This document shows, in pieces, positions 14,753 to 40,672 of a stretch of 64,000 nucleotides of DNA. This stretch comes from Granulicella sp. (lineage in GTDB: Bacteria > Acidobacteriota > Terriglobia > Terriglobales > Acidobacteriaceae). The notes below the pieces were generated by a model, which saw only the letters and a list, made by a program, of their open reading frames with translations, was not told the DNA's origin and did not search any database. The stretch spans positions 62,001 through 126,000 of the forward strand of contig DAIDGQ010000009.1 in assembly GCA_027452215.1 (NCBI GenBank), read 5' to 3'. Position numbers and translations under genes: made by a program. The first letter of the stretch is position 1; each line of letters begins with the position of its first letter.

Positions 14753-14830
14753 TCAAGCCCCAAAGCAAACCATTTGAGTCACCACCGAACCCCGACAGCC
14801 CAGGCAACCAGCAACAAGCAAGCAACAATC

Positions 14831-14914
14831 AGCTAGAAGCTAGAAGCTAGAAGCTAGAAGCTAGAAGCTAGAAGCTAGAAGCTAGAAGCTAGAAGCTAGA
14901 AGCTAGAAGCTAAA
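14831..14914 (+). repeat. Tandem heptamer repeat (AGCTAGA)n, 11 perfect copies plus one variant
   Basis: Eleven uninterrupted copies of the 7-mer AGCTAGA run from 14831 to 14907, followed by one AGCTAAA copy. Copy number of such perfect arrays usually varies between strains by slippage. The array lies between purA and a monooxygenase-like gene, 46 nt before the latter's start. It does not code for a plausible protein. Its reverse complement occurs upstream in degenerate form. Confidence 0.95.
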
Positions 14915-14960
14915 AGCGGCAGCGAGCAACCAGCGGCACCCAACCGAATAAAAGGAATTT

Positions 14961-30534: not shown

Positions 30535-33414
30535 TCAGCGCTTCTTCCGCTGCCGGGCTTTCGCCTTCCCACTCACCTTCTTCTCCTTCGACTTCGCCCT
30601 CTTCGCCTCACTCTTCCCGCCTCGCAAAGACCCGCCCTTCGCGATCCCCGTATTGGCCACCGGCTCCGTCCCCGGCATCAGCGCAAACTGCAGCCGCCGC
30701 TGCTGCCGGTCGATCCGGTCCAGCAGCACATGCACTCTCTGCCCCAGCGAAAACACATGTCCCGTCCGCGATCCCACAATCGCCCGGTCCGTATCGCGGA
30801 AGCTATAGAAGTCGCCCACCAGAGACCCCAGCGGCACCAGCCCCTCGATGAACATGTCATCCAGCTCCACAAAAAATCCATACTTCGTACACGACAGGAT
30901 CACAGCAGGGAAGTCATCGCCCACCTTGTCCGCCATGAACTTCATCTTCTTCCACTCAATCAGCTCCCGCTCCGCATCGGCCGCCCTCCTCTCCGCCTGC
31001 GAGCTCTCCACCGCAATATCGTTCAACTCCTCCGCACTCATGGGCCCTTCTACTGATCCGGGTGCTACATTCGTGCGCATGGTTGTGCCCGGTTGGGATG
31101 CTCCGTGCTGCCGGGAATCCAACTCTCGCCGTCCGCGCAGGACCCACGGCTGCGCGTCATCGCTCCTTATCGCCCCTCCTCTCGGATCCGCACCCTCCCG
31201 CAGCATCGCCCTCACCAGCCGATGCACAATCAAATCCGGATACCTCCGAATCGGCGACGTAAAGTGCGTATACGAAGGAGACGCCAGCGCAAAGTGTCCT
31301 TCATTCTTCTCCGCATACCTCGCCAGCTTCAGCGACCGCAGCATCAGGTACGACAGGATCCTCTCCTCCGGAGTCCCGCTAATCCTCTTCACCAGCTTCT
31401 GGTACATCTGCGGAGTCACCACAATGCTCTCCGGAACCTCATGCTGCTGCGCCGCCCGCGAGTCCTTCCCCCGCGCCGACCTCTGCCGCCCCTCCCTCCG
31501 GTCCGCCTTCATCGTGAACTTCCGCACCGGCAGGTTCCCCAGCCCCAGCGAGTGCCCAAACCCCGCCGCCGTCTCCTCAAAGTCCACAATCCTCTTCGGG
31601 TCCGGCATCTCGTGGATCCGGTAGATCGACGAAATCCCCTGCCGCTCCAGCCACGTCGCCACGCACTCGTTGGCCGACAGCATGAACTCCTCAATCAGCC
31701 GGTGAGCCCACCCCCTCTCCGACCTCACAATCGCCTTCATGTTCCCGTCCGGATCAAACTCGACAATCGGCTCCGGAAGGTCAAAGTCAATCGACCCACG
31801 ACGTACCCTCTTCGCATTCAGCCTCAGCGCCAGCTCCAGCATCGAGTCGAACGCCGCCGGAAGCCCGGCAAACTCCATTTCGATCCGTTCTCGCTCGACA
31901 ATGTCCCCCAACCTTCCTTCAGTCACGCCGCTTGCAACCCCAGACTGGCTTGAATACGCGCCATTCTCACCCCCTTTGCCCGCATTGATGCACTGCTGCA
32001 CGCTCGTGTACGTCATCCGGCGCACACTGCGAATAATCCCCTCCGTCACCCGGTAGCCAACGATTTCGCCCTCCGGATCGATCTCCATGATGCAGCTAAG
32101 TACAAGCCTGTCTTTATTTGGAAGCAGGCTGCACATCCCGCTTGAGAGCGCATGAGGAAGCATCGGAACCGCCCGGTCAGGGAAATACACGCTCGTTCCC
32201 CGCATCCGAGCCTCCGTATCCAGCGCCGACCCCGGCCGAACATACCAGCTGACATCCGCAATATGCACCTGTAACTCACTGTTTCCATTGGGCAAACTGC
32301 GTACCAGCACCGCATCGTCGAAGTCCCGAGCCGTCTCTCCATCGATCGTCACAATCGGCAGACCCCGGAAATCCTCCCTGTTTTCAAGCACTTCCGGCCC
32401 GGCAGCCTCCACCGTCTCGAGCGCCCGGTCCGCCGCCTCAGCCAGCACCGCCGCAGGGAAAGTATGTGGAATGTGATGTTTACGGATGATGATCTCCACA
32501 TCCACGCCGAACGCGTCCGGTGGCCCCAGCACCTCAATCACCCTCCCCCTCGCCGGCCTCCCAGCAGAAGGAAAACTGGTGATCTCCACGTCCACCGCCA
32601 GCCCCTCCAGGGGGTACCGTGGATCTTTCGAATCAGTAGCTTGCAGCGTTCTCCGAGCCTCCTCACCCAGCATCCGGTGGGGCGAATCCACCACCTCCGC
32701 GACCACCTCATCCCCCTCCGCAATGCTGATCGCCCCCCCGATCCGCTCGTCGAGCGGGGACACGTAATTGCCCGTAAGCGTAATCGAATCAGCGCGTTGG
32801 TGGGGTCGAGCATAGTGGAAGATCCCCACCACAGTCGGATTGCGACGAGTCAGAACCCGCGCAATCCGCCCCGAACGTCGCCCATCCCTCCCCGGAAGTG
32901 CCTCATCCACAAGGACTAAGTCCCCCTGCATCGCCCCATTGATCTCGTTGGGAGGAATAAAGATATCCTCCTGCCGCTGCCCCTCGGCAGCCCCCGTTCC
33001 CCTTGCGGAGGCTCCTTTACCCCTTTGCTGTGAGGTACTTGCCTCAGGCCGAACAAACCCGAACCCATCCCGGTGCAGGTCCAGACGCCCACTGACCAGC
33101 CGCTCTCGCCCCGAACGAACGGCCGCCTCCATCCCATCCCATCGACCTCCCTGTCTTCCAGGCCGACCCGACCCTCCAACTGCCTGATTCACAACGGGTT
33201 CTGCCCTGGGGATCGACCACATATCCTCGCCAGCGCGCACCAGGTCGCCGCGCGCCACCATCCGAGTCAGTTGCTCCACCAGCAACCGCCGTTCGCGCCC
33301 CCCACCCAGCCCCAGTTCACGGATAAGTTGTTTGTAACCAGCACGTCCGCCCGCCGAGCGACTGATTCTGGCGATCAAATCGTGATCACTGCGTGGATAA
33401 GGAGTCCGTGCCAT
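30535..33414 (-). CDS. rnr: Ribonuclease R (RNB family), with lineage-specific insertions
   Basis: RNase R is a processive 3'-5' exoribonuclease that degrades structured RNA. An N-terminal helix-turn-helix (DLIARISRSAGGRAGYKQLI) and cold-shock domains (LHRDGFGFVRPE) precede the RNB core with TIDGETARDFDDAV carrying the catalytic aspartates, then HIADVSWYVRPGSALD and the C-terminal S1 domain (TKYGFFVELDDMFIEGLVPL). A Lys-rich tail ends it. At 959 residues it is ~150 longer than E. coli RNase R. The surplus includes a Gly/Arg-rich block after the first CSD, GKGGENGAYSSQSGVASGVT inside the RNB domain, and DSRQHGASQPGTTMRTNVAP near its end, all hydrophilic and repeat-like. Confidence 0.95.
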   Translation of the reverse strand: MARTPYPRSDHDLIARISRSAGGRAGYKQLIRELGLGGGRERRLLVEQLTRMVARGDLVRAGEDMWSIPRAEPVVNQAVGGSGRPGRQGGRWDGMEAAVRSGRERLVSGRLDLHRDGFGFVRPEASTSQQRGKGASARGTGAAEGQRQEDIFIPPNEINGAMQGDLVLVDEALPGRDGRRSGRIARVLTRRNPTVVGIFHYARPHQRADSITLTGNYVSPLDERIGGAISIAEGDEVVAEVVDSPHRMLGEEARRTLQATDSKDPRYPLEGLAVDVEITSFPSAGRPARGRVIEVLGPPDAFGVDVEIIIRKHHIPHTFPAAVLAEAADRALETVEAAGPEVLENREDFRGLPIVTIDGETARDFDDAVLVRSLPNGNSELQVHIADVSWYVRPGSALDTEARMRGTSVYFPDRAVPMLPHALSSGMCSLLPNKDRLVLSCIMEIDPEGEIVGYRVTEGIIRSVRRMTYTSVQQCINAGKGGENGAYSSQSGVASGVTEGRLGDIVERERIEMEFAGLPAAFDSMLELALRLNAKRVRRGSIDFDLPEPIVEFDPDGNMKAIVRSERGWAHRLIEEFMLSANECVATWLERQGISSIYRIHEMPDPKRIVDFEETAAGFGHSLGLGNLPVRKFTMKADRREGRQRSARGKDSRAAQQHEVPESIVVTPQMYQKLVKRISGTPEERILSYLMLRSLKLARYAEKNEGHFALASPSYTHFTSPIRRYPDLIVHRLVRAMLREGADPRGGAIRSDDAQPWVLRGRRELDSRQHGASQPGTTMRTNVAPGSVEGPMSAEELNDIAVESSQAERRAADAERELIEWKKMKFMADKVGDDFPAVILSCTKYGFFVELDDMFIEGLVPLGSLVGDFYSFRDTDRAIVGSRTGHVFSLGQRVHVLLDRIDRQQRRLQFALMPGTEPVANTGIAKGGSLRGGKSEAKRAKSKEKKVSGKAKARQRKKR
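31042..31160 (-). repeat. Repeat-like in-frame insertion inside rnr
   Basis: A segment of roughly 120 bp coding RRELDSRQHGASQPGTTMRT lies between the RNB core and the S1 domain where other RNase R proteins have a short linker. The sequence GCAGCACGGAGCATCCCAAC looks like intergenic repeat DNA. Boundaries are approximate; copy number could not be checked. Confidence 0.45.
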
Positions 33415-33519
33415 GGCCTACGACGAGCATACTCGGGATCCCATCCGAAGCGCACCAACAACCCAATACCAGCAAGATCTCCTCCCACCAAACGACCTTG
33501 ATCCCCAACCTGAGCGTCC

Positions 33520-33798
33520 TCAAATTAGGGTCCAAATGGCGTAAATCAAGCATTAAACCAAAGTAGATTGGTCTGAAAGACAGGCCCATAAGCTAGATAA
33601 ATCTTAGAGATAGCTCAGTATTGAATAAGTAATGACTAACGTTACTTCAGTAATGTTAACTGAAGAGTATATAGTTATGTTGTTGATAAGAATAGACTTA
33701 CAACTTTTATCACTTTATGTTGTGACTATCTGGTTTGTCCAGAGAAAAATTTGAAATCTTTCACCAACTACTTAACCACTGCCAAGGAGAAATACACC
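33520..33798. other. AT-rich intergenic island at GC-skew switch (candidate oriC or junction)
   Basis: The 33541-33780 stretch has 77 G/C of 240 (32%) by hand count, against ~60% on both sides. It contains a DnaA-box-like TTATCAACA (minus, 33681-33689, one mismatch to TTATNCACA), weaker TTAT variants, the inverted repeat CTTCAGT/ACTGAAG (33645-33665), palindromes TAACGTTA and GTTAAC, and a direct repeat AGTAATG...TAAC. A closer DnaA-like TTATCCACG lies at ~33391 within rnr. The plus strand is C-rich to the left and G-rich to the right. It also must hold the promoter of the peptide gene. Confidence 0.55.
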
Positions 33799-33981
33799 AT
33801 GAAAAACATCGCAATGCGCAGCTTCGTTCTCGTCCTCGCCCTCGTCGGATTCGCCGCCACCTCCATGACCTCCTCGGCAAAGACCACCAGCACATCCGCA
33901 ACCAGCATCCAGCTACAGACCGGCGTTGTGTCTTCCCCCACTCCGCTCTGCGCACCAGGCAGCACCTGCGGCATGGACTAG
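33799..33981 (+). CDS. Small secreted peptide precursor (60 aa)
   Basis: A 60-residue ORF starting MKNIAMRSFVLVLALVGFAA (AAGGAG 9 nt upstream fixes the start; the track start is 16 codons earlier). The first ~29 residues form a signal peptide ending near SSAKT, and the mature part is a ~30-residue Ser/Thr-rich peptide ending PTPLCAPGSTCGMD, with two cysteines that could form a disulfide loop (CAPGSTC). I recall similar short proteins with C-terminal C-x-x-x-x-x-C-G-[ML]-D in other Acidobacteriaceae but cannot verify this. It lies 91 nt upstream of a seven-helix membrane protein on the same strand, an arrangement compatible with a secreted ligand and its receptor. Confidence 0.8.
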   Translation: MKNIAMRSFVLVLALVGFAATSMTSSAKTTSTSATSIQLQTGVVSSPTPLCAPGSTCGMD

Positions 33982-34026
33982 CTTTACGCAAAATATATTG
34001 GCTGATCCACCATATTGCAGTTGCTT

Positions 34027-34066
34027 CACCTCCCTAGTGCGGATACCATTATCGCGCAGGGAGGTG
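34027..34066 (+). promoter_or_regulatory. Hairpin sequestering the ribosome-binding site of the 7-TM gene
   Basis: CACCTCCCT (34027-34035) pairs perfectly with AGGGAGGTG (34058-34066). Inside, GTGCG pairs with CGCGC (one G-U), extending the stem with a single bulged A. The right arm contains the GGGAGG Shine-Dalgarno of the membrane protein, whose ATG is 6 nt further on. No U-run follows, so it is not a terminator. Translation of the 7-TM gene should be low unless the stem opens, by heat, a trans-acting RNA or protein, or ribosome movement. Confidence 0.75.
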
Positions 34067-34072
34067 TTTGCC

Positions 34073-35041
34073 ATGGATACGAAGCTGCTTCTGGAATATG
34101 CCATGTTTGCTGAGGTCTTCGTTGGGATCGGCATTCTAATGCTGATGATGCGTAAGCGTTTGCTTCGCGACTTCGGCTTCCTCGCGGCGTTTCTCGCTGT
34201 TGATAGCTTTGAAAACAGCATTTCCATCCCTCTGCTCTTTTTCCGGCAGCATCTCGGTATCTCGAAGATTCTTTGTTACGAAATTTACTTTTACTCACAC
34301 TGGTTTCTCTTCTTCGTTGAGTACAGCCTATTGCTGATGGTTATCTATGGAGTGTTTCATCGTGCGATGAAGCCGCTAGAAGGATTACATCGGGCAGGCA
34401 AGATCATATTTCGTTGGGTTGGTGGGGTTTCATTGGCCCTTTCTCTGGTTATGGCCTTGGGTCCGCATATTGCAGGACAGTTCTACATCGCAACGCTGGC
34501 AGGCCAGATGCAGCAAGGCATAAGCATTCTCATCCTTTGCCTTCTACTGTTCGTATGTTTTTCCACGAGGTATTTGGGCCTTACTTACAGAAGCCACATC
34601 TTCGGCGTCAGCCTTGGGCTTGGCATTTTCGCGACTGTAAGCCTTGTTGAATCAGCATGGTATGCGACGGGAGTTGGTCAAACCGTTTATTCGCCGGTTT
34701 ATGTCGTAAGCGCGCTGGGCACTTGTGCTGCTTTGCTCACGTGGGGCACCTATTTTGCGATGCCGGAGCCGGAGCGGAAGATGATTCTGCTCCCAACCAC
34801 TTCGCCCTTCTTCCTATGGAACCGCATATCCGAGGCCTTGGGTGATGAGCCAGGTTTTGTTGCGATCGCGGGGTTTAAGCCAGAGATGCTGGCACCTGCT
34901 GAGTTGACGGTGTTCACGGCTGCTTCAAAGCACGCGCACAAGCGCAAGATGGAAGAAGAGGCTGCGCAACGCGAGGCTGAGGCTGCGAACGCAGCTGCGC
35001 AGCAGGCCTTAGCCATGCAGCCCATTGCGATGCAGCGGTAG
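34073..35041 (+). CDS. Seven-helix integral membrane protein, function unknown
   Basis: A 322-residue protein. ATG 34073 follows GGGAGG by ~8 nt; the track start 49 codons earlier overlaps the hairpin and is unlikely. Seven hydrophobic segments are visible, beginning LLEYAMFAEVFVGIGILMLM and ending VYVVSALGTCAALLTWGTYF. A cytoplasmic tail of ~85 residues ends in an Ala/Glu-rich coiled-coil stretch (KRKMEEEAAQREAEAANAAA). No catalytic motif or known receptor signature was recognised. GC is lower (38-50%) than the neighbours. The upstream secreted peptide and the hairpin over its ribosome-binding site suggest a regulated peptide-membrane-protein pair; role unproven. Confidence 0.8.
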   Translation: MDTKLLLEYAMFAEVFVGIGILMLMMRKRLLRDFGFLAAFLAVDSFENSISIPLLFFRQHLGISKILCYEIYFYSHWFLFFVEYSLLLMVIYGVFHRAMKPLEGLHRAGKIIFRWVGGVSLALSLVMALGPHIAGQFYIATLAGQMQQGISILILCLLLFVCFSTRYLGLTYRSHIFGVSLGLGIFATVSLVESAWYATGVGQTVYSPVYVVSALGTCAALLTWGTYFAMPEPERKMILLPTTSPFFLWNRISEALGDEPGFVAIAGFKPEMLAPAELTVFTAASKHAHKRKMEEEAAQREAEAANAAAQQALAMQPIAMQR

Positions 35042-35050
35042 TCGGCTCCG

Positions 35051-36241
35051 ATGGAGCCTGTAACCCATATGCTGACGGGCGCATGCCTGTCCCGCACTGG
35101 CCTTAATCGGAAGGCTGCCTATGCCACGCTAACGATGGTCGTGGCAGCTGAGTTCCCCGATGTCGACATGTTATGGGGCCTGCGGGGGCCAGTCGATCAA
35201 TTTCAGCACCATCGCGGTATTACGCATGCATTTTTAGGGCTGCCCTTTGAGGCAGCCCTTCTCGTTGCAGCAGTCTACTGCTGGCACCGGTGGCGGGTCG
35301 CCAGAGAGAAGCGCAGTGCCGGGGGCACTGGGGAAAGCAGACTGGGCCCTCGAGGAGGGGTGAAGTCGCTGACGGCTGCGCCAGTGCGTTGGGGCGTGCT
35401 GTACGTGTTGGCACTGCTGGCGCTCACAAGCCACCTGCTGCTGGACTACACCAATAGTTATGGAATTCGGCCATTTTTCCCGTTCAATGGCCGATGGTAT
35501 GCCGCATCGATCGCATTCATCTTCGATCCGGTGATGTTTGTGTTGTTACTGGGCGCTCTCACGGCGCCGTGGTTGTTTGGGCTCATCGGGTCGGAGGTGG
35601 GCGCTAAGAAGCAGCCATTCAACGCGCGGGGATGGTCAATTGCGGCGCTGCTGGGCGTTGTGGGGTGGTGGGGGTTGCGCGAGGTCGAGCATGGGCGCGC
35701 GATGCAGTTGGCAATGGCGCAGAGTATCGCAGGGCCGTCTGAGTCTATCGCTGCACCGGAGTCATCGGTAAACGATCAAAGTGCGCCCGCTCCTGACGAA
35801 CCGCCGCCGGTCTATTTGTCGGCCCAGAGGGCGCTGGCGAACCCGGATTTGCTGAGTCCATTTCGTTGGTCGACGGTAATGGATTTTGGACCGGTGTACC
35901 AGTTGGGTGTGGCCGATACTCGGACCGGGGAGTTGGCAATGGGCGAGACGACGTATCCGAAGCCGGGGAGGAGTTCGGTGGTGTTGGCCGCAGAAGGTAG
36001 CAAGCTGGGGCGAGCCTATATGGACTGGTCGCCGATGCCGTTTGTAGAGGTGAACCGCGAGTTGCCGACGGAGAACCCTGAGGGAAATCGGGATGCGAGC
36101 ACAGTGGTGACGTTTCGCGATCCGCGGTTTATGGGTGGGTGGATGGGAAGCCCGGCTCGGTCGGCGCTGTCGGGGACCGTCACCCTGAACGCTGCGGGGA
36201 AGGTTGTGCAGCAGACGATGGGTGGGAGGGTCGAGAAGTAA
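35051..36241 (+). CDS. YdjM/DUF457-type membrane-bound metal-dependent hydrolase
   Basis: A 396-residue inner-membrane protein. The N-terminus has the YdjM/LexA-regulated hydrolase motifs: THMLTGACLSRTGLNRK, AAEFPDVDMLWG and HHRGITHAFLGLP, likely metal ligands (His, Asp). Several transmembrane helices follow. A C-terminal domain of ~150 residues is extra (ESSVNDQSAPAPDEPPPVYL, then beta-rich GELAMGETTYPKPGRSS). The reaction is not established; the family is described as putative phospholipid or metal-dependent hydrolase. It starts 9 nt after the 7-TM stop, so it may be cotranscribed with it. Confidence 0.88.
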   Translation: MEPVTHMLTGACLSRTGLNRKAAYATLTMVVAAEFPDVDMLWGLRGPVDQFQHHRGITHAFLGLPFEAALLVAAVYCWHRWRVAREKRSAGGTGESRLGPRGGVKSLTAAPVRWGVLYVLALLALTSHLLLDYTNSYGIRPFFPFNGRWYAASIAFIFDPVMFVLLLGALTAPWLFGLIGSEVGAKKQPFNARGWSIAALLGVVGWWGLREVEHGRAMQLAMAQSIAGPSESIAAPESSVNDQSAPAPDEPPPVYLSAQRALANPDLLSPFRWSTVMDFGPVYQLGVADTRTGELAMGETTYPKPGRSSVVLAAEGSKLGRAYMDWSPMPFVEVNRELPTENPEGNRDASTVVTFRDPRFMGGWMGSPARSALSGTVTLNAAGKVVQQTMGGRVEK

Positions 36242-39482: not shown

Positions 39483-39713
39483 ATGCAGAGCTTTGACAGC
39501 GAGCATCGTGGAGTCGCACCACAGATCCCTGAGCCGACGCCGGGGCTTACGCGTAAGCGTGCAGAGCTCGAGATTTATCGAGCCGAGCGCGAAACAATCG
39601 GGCGCAGGAGTATGGTGCGAGGATTGATTTTGCTGGCGGTTGTAGCTCTCGGCTGGAGTATCGCACGCGGAGGAATAGAGCGGGTGTTTGTCCCTGGCTG
39701 GTGGCGATTCTAA
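39483..39713 (+). CDS. Small single-pass membrane protein between tonB-like gene and miaA
   Basis: A 76-residue protein: a soluble N-terminus rich in Pro and Glu (PQIPEPTPGLTRKRAELEIY), then one hydrophobic helix VRGLILLAVVALGWSIARGG and a short tail VFVPGWWRF. No known family. It starts 5 nt after the TonB-like stop, and its TAA overlaps the miaA ATG (TAATG), so the three are cotranscribed. It may be a helper of the TonB-like protein or simply a small envelope protein. Confidence 0.7.
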   Translation: MQSFDSEHRGVAPQIPEPTPGLTRKRAELEIYRAERETIGRRSMVRGLILLAVVALGWSIARGGIERVFVPGWWRF

Positions 39714-40672
39714 TGTCTGCCCCCGGAGAGAACGACTATCCGTTGCTGGTGGTGGCTGGGCCTACGGCGAGTGGAAAGACCGCACTGGCGCTGCGTTTGG
39801 CGGAAGAATTGGGTGGCGAAATCGTCAGCTGCGACTCGGTTGCGGTATACCGGCTGATGGAGATCGGCACGGCGAAACCAACGCTGGAGGAACGGGCGCG
39901 GGTCACGCATCACTGCCTTGATTTGTATTGGCCAGATGAGGAGTGCACGGCAGGGGATTACGCTCGCCATGCGCGCGAGGCGATTGCGGGGATTCGCGAC
40001 CGCGGGCGGATTCCGATTGTTGCCGGCGGGACGGGTTTGTATCTACGAGCGCTGCTCGAAGGGCTCGCTCCGGCACCGCAGCGGGACGATTCGTTGCGCG
40101 AGCGGTTGAGAGAACGAGTCAAGCGCAAGGGGTCTGCATGGCTGCATCAACTGCTTCAGAGGCTTGATCCGCGGGCGGCGGAGCTGATCCATGCGAACGA
40201 TGTGCCGAAGTTGATTCGGAGTATTGAGGTGACGCTGGCAGCGCGCCAGCCGCAGACCGAGCAGTGGCAGGTGGGGCGTGATCCGCTGCAAGGATATCGC
40301 GCGCTGCAGATGGGGCTGGCACCGGACCGGGAGCGGTTATACGCGAGGATCAATGGGCGCGCTGCGGCAATGTTCGAGCGTGGTTTGGTGGTCGAGACGG
40401 AGATGCTGCGGGAGAGGTTTGGGGACGGTTGCCGTGCTCTGGGTGCATTGGGATACTCGCAAGCGATGGCGGTTTTGCGTGGCGAGATAACGCTGGATGA
40501 GGCGGTTGCCGCGGCACAGCAGGGGCATCGCAATTATGCAAAGCGGCAGGGTACGTGGTTTCGTCGGGAGGCTGGTATAGGTTGGCTCCCGGGCTTCGGA
40601 GATGAGAAAACAGTGCAGGATCAGGCGCTGGCTTTGGCGACGGCCCATGTGACCGGAGGTGTGACTTCGTGA
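39713..40672 (+). CDS. miaA: tRNA dimethylallyltransferase
   Basis: MiaA adds a dimethylallyl group to A37 of tRNAs reading UNN codons. The 319-residue protein has the P-loop VVAGPTASGKTALALRLAEE, SCDSVAVYRLMEIGTAKP, HCLDLYWPDEECTAGDY and the tRNA-contact IVAGGTGLYLRALLEG. The later ALGYSQAMAVLRGEITLDEA and NYAKRQGTWFRRE are also family marks. I start at ATG 39713, which overlaps the previous stop (TAATG), rather than the GTG 12 nt earlier. The next gene overlaps its stop by 4 nt. Confidence 0.96.
   Translation: MSAPGENDYPLLVVAGPTASGKTALALRLAEELGGEIVSCDSVAVYRLMEIGTAKPTLEERARVTHHCLDLYWPDEECTAGDYARHAREAIAGIRDRGRIPIVAGGTGLYLRALLEGLAPAPQRDDSLRERLRERVKRKGSAWLHQLLQRLDPRAAELIHANDVPKLIRSIEVTLAARQPQTEQWQVGRDPLQGYRALQMGLAPDRERLYARINGRAAAMFERGLVVETEMLRERFGDGCRALGALGYSQAMAVLRGEITLDEAVAAAQQGHRNYAKRQGTWFRREAGIGWLPGFGDEKTVQDQALALATAHVTGGVTS

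What the first reader, a model, noticed from the sequence alone, without database searches (positions are those of the whole stretch)
33415..33998. Abrupt GC-skew switch at an AT-rich island: candidate chromosomal origin
Seen: left of 33.4 kb the plus strand is C-rich in genes on both strands (sample 60-nt lines: 8641, G14/C23; 2041 in minus-strand ahcY, G15/C28). Right of 34 kb it is G-rich in genes on both strands (40321, G24/C15; 41221 in a minus-strand gene, G22/C9). The 240 bp between are 32% GC and contain TTATCAACA, a nearby TTATCCACG, inverted and direct repeats. Known: a negative-to-positive switch of plus-strand skew marks replication origins, and origins are AT-rich with DnaA boxes (TTATNCACA). 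No dnaA, dnaN, gyrB or parAB is nearby, so an inversion endpoint is the main alternative.
Basis: partly seen in the sequence, partly recalled or inferred. Interest (0 to 1): 0.75.

Follow-up and report, generated by a model that had tools for sequence, protein, structure and literature searches.

The report
Recurrent GC-skew switch in Granulicella
The abrupt switch in strand composition is real, but it is one of many in this soil bacterium's chromosome, and it is kept at the same spot in related species, so it looks less like the usual single replication origin and more like one of several places from which replication could start; if true that would be very unusual for a bacterium.

Summary
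The skew switch is confirmed: skew goes from about -0.25 to +0.15 near 34.03 kb, in genes on both strands. The AT-rich island (33.53-33.77 kb, 32% GC) lies about 300 bp to its left. It is the conserved leader of a small secreted-peptide gene and also occurs in relatives without a switch. It has no DnaA-box cluster, and dnaA is on another contig.

The window comes from a Granulicella MAG. In 2.07 Mb of it there are 11 large upward switches (this one included), against one comparable downward switch. Skew at fourfold-degenerate sites reaches 0.8-0.9, whichever strand the gene is on. The isolate Granulicella sp. L46 shows the same kind of pattern.

Gene order across the window's switch is conserved in species with and without it, so it is not an inversion endpoint. 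Synonymous sites are near saturation between species that share it, so it is not a fading relic.

Best reading: a locally maintained, origin-like fork-polarity switch, one of several in the chromosome (confidence 0.45). Some other switches are rearrangement junctions. One complete relative looks like a mostly ordinary single-origin genome. All evidence is compositional; sequencing-depth profiling of strain L46 would decide.

The parts
33889..34393 (.). skew switch point (negative to positive); best estimate 34033-34040
   Evidence: change-point fits
33534..33773 (.). AT-rich island (32% GC): conserved upstream/leader region of the small peptide gene; conserved blocks GGACTTA, TATGTTG, CTGGTTTGTCCAGAGAAA, AAGGAGAAATAC
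   Evidence: GC; conserved in 9 sequences, with and without the skew switch
33800..33982 (+). small secreted-peptide gene (60 aa: signal peptide, then a Cys-containing tail ...CAPGSTCGMD); no Pfam family
   Evidence: sequence, homologues, (no Pfam match)
30535..33414 (-). RNase R gene (rnr), left flank of the switch, transcribed away from it
   Evidence: TIGR02063 626 bits above cut-off; RNB domain
34073..35041 (+). gene of unknown family (hydrophobic, membrane-like sequence), right flank, transcribed away from the switch
   Evidence: no family match
35051..36241 (+). YdjM-family membrane protein; with RNase R part of a gene order conserved across the switch
   Evidence: PF04307; order in relatives
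39701..40672 (+). miaA, part of the conserved gene order right of the switch
   Evidence: TIGR00174
33681..33689 (-). TTATCAACA (1 mismatch to the E. coli DnaA box); not conserved in relatives that share the switch
33392..33400 (-). TTATCCACG inside the RNase R coding sequence; not conserved in all relatives that share the switch

Best explanation
The point at about 34.03 kb is a locally maintained switch of replication-fork polarity. Forks tend to leave it in both directions, so the G-rich leading strand is the minus strand to the left and the plus strand to the right. It is one of several such origin-like points in this Granulicella chromosome, which is cut into skew domains with mostly abrupt upward borders and mostly gradual downward slopes, as expected if replication starts at defined places and ends at scattered places in between. 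Shown: the switch, its independence of gene strand, its recurrence along the genome, its persistence at the same spot in four close relatives with unchanged gene order, and near-saturation of synonymous sites, which rules out a simple relic. Inferred: that the polarity is replication polarity (supported by the main skew switch of the complete relative G007 lying at dnaA) and that initiation happens here. Unknown: the initiator. No DnaA-box cluster and no shared repeat was found, and an RNase H-like gene is present.
For: Strand-independent skew up to 0.9 at fourfold sites. In 2.07 Mb, 11 upward versus 1 downward step of at least 0.8 (p = 0.003); at 10-kb scale 619 versus 0 grid points above 0.3. 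Same switch at the RNase R 5' end in L118, L119 (isolate L46), L124 and L153, which with the window fall in one clade supported 100/99. Same gene order across it in relatives with and without the switch. Excess fourfold-site identity to the switch-sharing relatives is only 0.12-0.38, yet each keeps opposite skews on the two sides. A second strong switch, C12:116.0 kb, also sits in gene order conserved in four genomes. A gradual slope (C37:0-36 kb) is likewise kept in L46 with conserved order near saturation. In complete genome G007 the main skew switch brackets dnaA, so up-switch = origin in this genus.
Against: No direct replication data. No origin-like motif, repeat or DnaA-box cluster shared by the switches. 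G007 has a 1-Mb arm without any switch. At least two of the sharpest switches (C45:29.7 kb, C27:21.0 kb) are rearrangement junctions. C22:136 kb is a sharp downward step, and C22:0-70 kb rises gradually. Intergenic skew is only a third of fourfold-site skew, which a pure mutation model does not predict simply. A natural bacterial chromosome with many origins would be unprecedented (PMC4403523 states none was known).
Confidence: 0.45

Rival explanations
1. Single-origin chromosome with extreme strand asymmetry that has been scrambled by inversions; the switches are inversion junctions whose old composition has not yet relaxed.
For: C45:29.7 kb joins segments that lie 450 kb apart in inverted orientation in L46; C27:21.0 kb joins aroB and a xanthine-dehydrogenase-type gene that are far apart elsewhere; G007 looks mostly two-armed around dnaA.
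Against: Gene order is unbroken across the window switch and across C12:116.0 kb. Relic skew should have decayed at the observed saturation. Inversions give equally sharp up and down steps, not 11 to 1. Gradients persist inside conserved blocks.
Confidence: 0.25
2. The strand bias spreads from fixed hot spots by a process other than replication start, for example directional break repair or recombination-dependent synthesis with biased errors, decaying over tens of kilobases.
For: GC at fourfold sites falls from 0.88 to 0.69 as skew falls, so the bias may weaken with distance rather than merely mix; some of the sharpest switches coincide with rearrangement junctions; no origin motif.
Against: The sign matches ordinary leading-strand bias and the dnaA switch in G007; an AT-richer middle can also arise from mixing leading- and lagging-strand mutation (inference).
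Confidence: 0.15
3. The window switch is the true single oriC of this clade, moved away from dnaA; the other switches are rearrangement junctions.
For: Maintained switch with AT-rich DNA in five related genomes.
Against: A second non-junction switch of greater size exists (C12:116.0 kb); a switch lies 17 kb from dnaA; no DnaA-box cluster; the AT-rich island is present in relatives without the switch.
Confidence: 0.1
4. Boundary of gene-level or horizontally acquired composition with no link to replication.
For: GC is lower right of 50 kb and skew weak there.
Against: Orthologous, syntenic genes flank the point in many species; skew is independent of gene strand and flips in orthologues where the domain differs.
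Confidence: 0.05

Closest known systems
Canonical DnaA-dependent bacterial oriC
   Same: abrupt negative-to-positive plus-strand skew switch next to AT-rich DNA
   Different: not at dnaA, no DnaA-box cluster, many such switches per genome, AT island conserved without a switch
Multi-origin archaeal chromosomes (e.g. Sulfolobus, Haloferax)
   Same: several upward skew switches in one chromosome
   Different: more and closer switches here (roughly one per 100-200 kb), a bacterium with dnaA, no initiator gene or origin-box repeat seen beside the switch
Human replication N-domains (PMC3320577)
   Same: abrupt upward borders and gradual decline between them
   Different: about ten times smaller, bacterial, skew at fourfold sites near 0.9
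Bacteria proposed from skew to have several origins (Xia 2012 PMC3269012; Gao 2015 PMC4403523)
   Same: multiple polarity changes in one bacterial chromosome
   Different: rearrangement and transfer remained open confounders there; here gene order and synonymous-site saturation were tested at the switch
R-loop-driven initiation (constitutive stable DNA replication, oriK) in E. coli lacking RNase HI (PMC7045392, PMC4631800)
   Same: DnaA-independent start sites would give extra polarity switches
   Different: an RNase H-like gene is present in this genome; switches are stable over long evolutionary times

Membership tests
Canonical bacterial oriC | next to dnaA/dnaN/gyrB or similar | tested here: not met
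   dnaA on contig C45; flanks are rnr and a gene without family match
Canonical bacterial oriC | cluster of DnaA boxes | tested here: not met
   one box with one mismatch in C9:95400-96200; boxes not conserved among relatives sharing the switch
Canonical bacterial oriC | AT-rich unwinding region tied to the switch | tested here: inconclusive
   island present but also in relatives without the switch
Canonical bacterial oriC | the one upward skew switch of the chromosome | tested here: not met
   11 upward switches of at least 0.8 at fourfold sites in 2.07 Mb
Inversion endpoint | gene order broken at the point relative to relatives | tested here: not met
   order rnr-34073-YdjM-...-miaA-VWA-tdh kept in L119, L124, L153, L131, L122 and largely L121
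Inversion endpoint | skew on one side decays as a relic | tested here: not met
   fourfold sites near saturation, both sides strongly skewed in five species
Multi-origin chromosome / N-domain | repeated abrupt up, gradual down | tested here: met
   11 versus 1 steps of at least 0.8, with exceptions on C22
Multi-origin chromosome / N-domain | bidirectional initiation at borders | not testable with these tools
   needs replication mapping or read depth
Multi-origin chromosome / N-domain | shared origin motif or initiator at borders | tested here: not met
   no shared repeat between 15 switch sites, no evident common motif by eye, no over-represented polar octamer that explains the skew

The most novel reading that the evidence does not exclude
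A clade of Granulicella naturally replicates its chromosome from many fixed, DnaA-box-poor sites spaced roughly 100-200 kb apart, with scattered termination between them; the window holds one such site at the RNase R 5' end.
Probability: 0.3. Interest if true: 0.95.

Novelty: new variant of a known kind. Interest (0 to 1): 0.7.

Why it matters
Natural bacterial chromosomes are held to use one origin. A cultured isolate (Granulicella sp. L46) carries the same kind of multi-domain skew, including this switch, so the question 'can a wild bacterium replicate from many places' becomes a routine sequencing experiment. Even if the answer is no, a bacterium whose synonymous sites are 85% G on one strand, with polarity flipping every 50-150 kb and in part inside conserved gene order, breaks the usual use of GC skew to find origins and check assemblies.

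Tried and rejected
Canonical oriC: rejected. Inversion endpoint at this locus: rejected. Gene-orientation or transcription bias: rejected (genes on G-rich and C-rich strands are about equally common). Shared repeat or recombination site at the switches: none found. A KOPS-like polar motif driving the skew: octamers with over 100:1 polarity exist but are explained by composition. Known RNA element in the AT-rich island: no Rfam match. An AT-rich island at every switch: no, most other switches have none. Decaying relic: rejected for the window. Ribosomal protein L2 was not found in the MAG, so ribosomal-operon polarity could not be used.

Full report
WHAT IS THERE. Every 2-kb bin from 1 to 34 kb is negative (-0.11 to -0.38) and bins from 34 to 50 kb are positive (+0.07 to +0.26). 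A change-point fit on third-codon and intergenic sites places it at window 34033 (33496-34064); an all-site fit gives 34.04 kb (33.89-34.39). The 32%-GC island (33534-33773) is about 300 bp to the left of the best estimate, so island and switch are neighbours, not the same thing.

THE ISLAND. It precedes a 60-aa secreted-peptide gene (33800-33982). Nine sequences (the window and eight relatives) keep the same leader blocks (GGACTTA, TATGTTG, CTGG...TTGTCCAGAGAAA, AAGGAGAAATAC) and the peptide. Relatives without the switch (L131, and in diverged form L121 and L122) have it too. There is no Rfam match and the peptide has no Pfam family. The two DnaA-box-like words are not a cluster and are not conserved in all relatives that share the switch. 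The island is therefore best read as a gene leader.

WHERE THE WINDOW COMES FROM. It is contig C9:62001-126000 of a 59%-complete, 45-contig genome whose nearest named relatives are Granulicella. dnaA is on contig C45 at 233.3 kb, where the nearest up-switch is at 250.4 kb.

GENOME-WIDE PATTERN. I tiled 2.07 Mb of the genome and profiled it. It is cut into domains of tens of kilobases to about 150 kb. Most begin with an abrupt negative-to-positive step and decline gradually to negative. With blocks of five genes at fourfold-degenerate sites, steps of at least 0.8 number 11 up and 1 down (p = 0.003); at 10-kb scale 619 grid points exceed +0.3 and none exceed -0.3. Exceptions are reported: C22:136 kb is a sharp downward step and C22:0-70 kb rises gradually. 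At lower thresholds the asymmetry weakens (18 up versus 11 down at 0.5). Fourfold-site skew reaches 0.8-0.9 near steps: 85% G on one strand, A and T about equal. It does not depend on gene strand (r = 0.92), and genes are not enriched on either strand. Intergenic skew follows the same sign at about one third of the size.

RELATIVES. Granulicella sp. L46, an isolate, shows the same kind of pattern in 400 kb and many polarity flips elsewhere by a strand-marker 11-mer. The complete genome G007 looks far more ordinary: markers flip between 2.115 and 2.170 Mb, bracketing dnaA at 2.140 Mb, with long uniform arms and a flip roughly opposite, although 1.5-2.4 Mb is fragmented. This fixes the sign: in this genus an upward switch is origin-like. 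Some other genomes of the genus (e.g. the complete 6.2-Mb genome G002) hold far fewer such markers, so their skew is weaker. Loci from more distant Acidobacteriota are near zero.

IS THE WINDOW SWITCH AN INVERSION ENDPOINT? No. The order rnr - 34073 - YdjM - ... - miaA - VWA - tdh is kept in L119, L124 and L153 (switch) and in L131, L122 and largely L121 (no switch). The window and the four relatives with the switch fall in one clade (100/99), with one member, L131, lacking it. The change point stays within about 1.5 kb of the RNase R 5' end in all five.

IS IT A FADING RELIC? No. Between the window and these relatives fourfold sites are near saturation (excess identity over composition 0.12-0.38), yet the two sides keep opposite skews in every one: window -0.7 to -0.8 | +0.3 to +0.5, L46 -0.66 | +0.24, UBA5172 -0.40 | +0.61, BP9 -0.33 | +0.50, G5_15 -0.37 | +0.51. 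A relic on either side should have passed through zero by then (inference from the saturation). A gradual slope in C37:0-36 kb is likewise kept in L46 with the same gene order near saturation. So the polarity is maintained now.

OTHER SWITCHES. They are mixed. C45:29.7 kb is a rearrangement (inversion-type) junction relative to L46 and G007, and C27:21.0 kb joins genes that lie apart in relatives. C12:116.0 kb, nearly as sharp as those, lies in gene order conserved in L46, G014, G021 and G007, with G007 apparently uniform there. So at least two strong switches in this genome are not junctions. No shared repeat, evident motif or DnaA-box cluster marks the switches.

MECHANISM. The best-supported reading is that fork polarity is set locally at several places: replication departs in both directions from points such as this one and ends at scattered positions between. 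The steps shown are the maintained switch, its recurrence, and independence from gene order and gene strand. The steps inferred are that the bias is replicative and that initiation occurs here. Mutational mixing of leading and lagging strands can account for the AT-richer, zero-skew middles (inference), but a process whose strength decays from hot spots, such as directional break repair, is not excluded. An RNase H-like protein is encoded beside the C12 switch, so loss of RNase H is not an obvious cause.

COMPARISON. Several-origin bacteria have been proposed from skew alone (PMC3269012, PMC4403523), with rearrangement or horizontal transfer named as confounders. Here rearrangement was tested at the locus and excluded, but not for the whole genome. 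Human N-domains (PMC3320577) share the shape. No paper found in the held library describes this for Acidobacteriota; that search is not exhaustive.

LIMITS. The genome is an incomplete MAG, the complete relative could be examined only by a strand marker, gene calls are my own, and no replication data exist here.

Noticed in passing
window 33800-33982: Small secreted peptide gene with a strongly conserved leader in Granulicella and a homologue in Bryocella (Cys-containing C-terminal tail); no Pfam family.
   Followed up: partly
window 14818-14917 and many other places of the MAG: Arrays of a short (about 7-base period) tandem repeat of one sequence type are dispersed through the genome.
   Followed up: no
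L085:169-222 (C27:20169-20222): A dispersed repeat of about 54 bp, with many copies at 80-93% identity in several Granulicella genomes, lies inside the aroB reading frame here.
   Followed up: no
L058:5472-5760 (C45 about 25.5-25.8 kb): Another dispersed repeat family with dozens of copies in the L46 genome and in G014.
   Followed up: no
whole MAG: Codon usage is bimodal: third positions up to about 85% G or 85% C depending on the domain, not on gene strand, which could mislead codon-usage and horizontal-transfer predictors.
   Followed up: partly
RNase R loci L138, L139, L141, L152 (Edaphobacter lichenicola): Four Edaphobacter strains also have an upward skew switch about 2.5 kb upstream of RNase R with different neighbouring genes, on a separate branch of the tree.
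   Followed up: partly
window 50-64 kb: Lower GC (0.50-0.58) and weak negative skew, perhaps accessory DNA at a domain centre.
   Followed up: no
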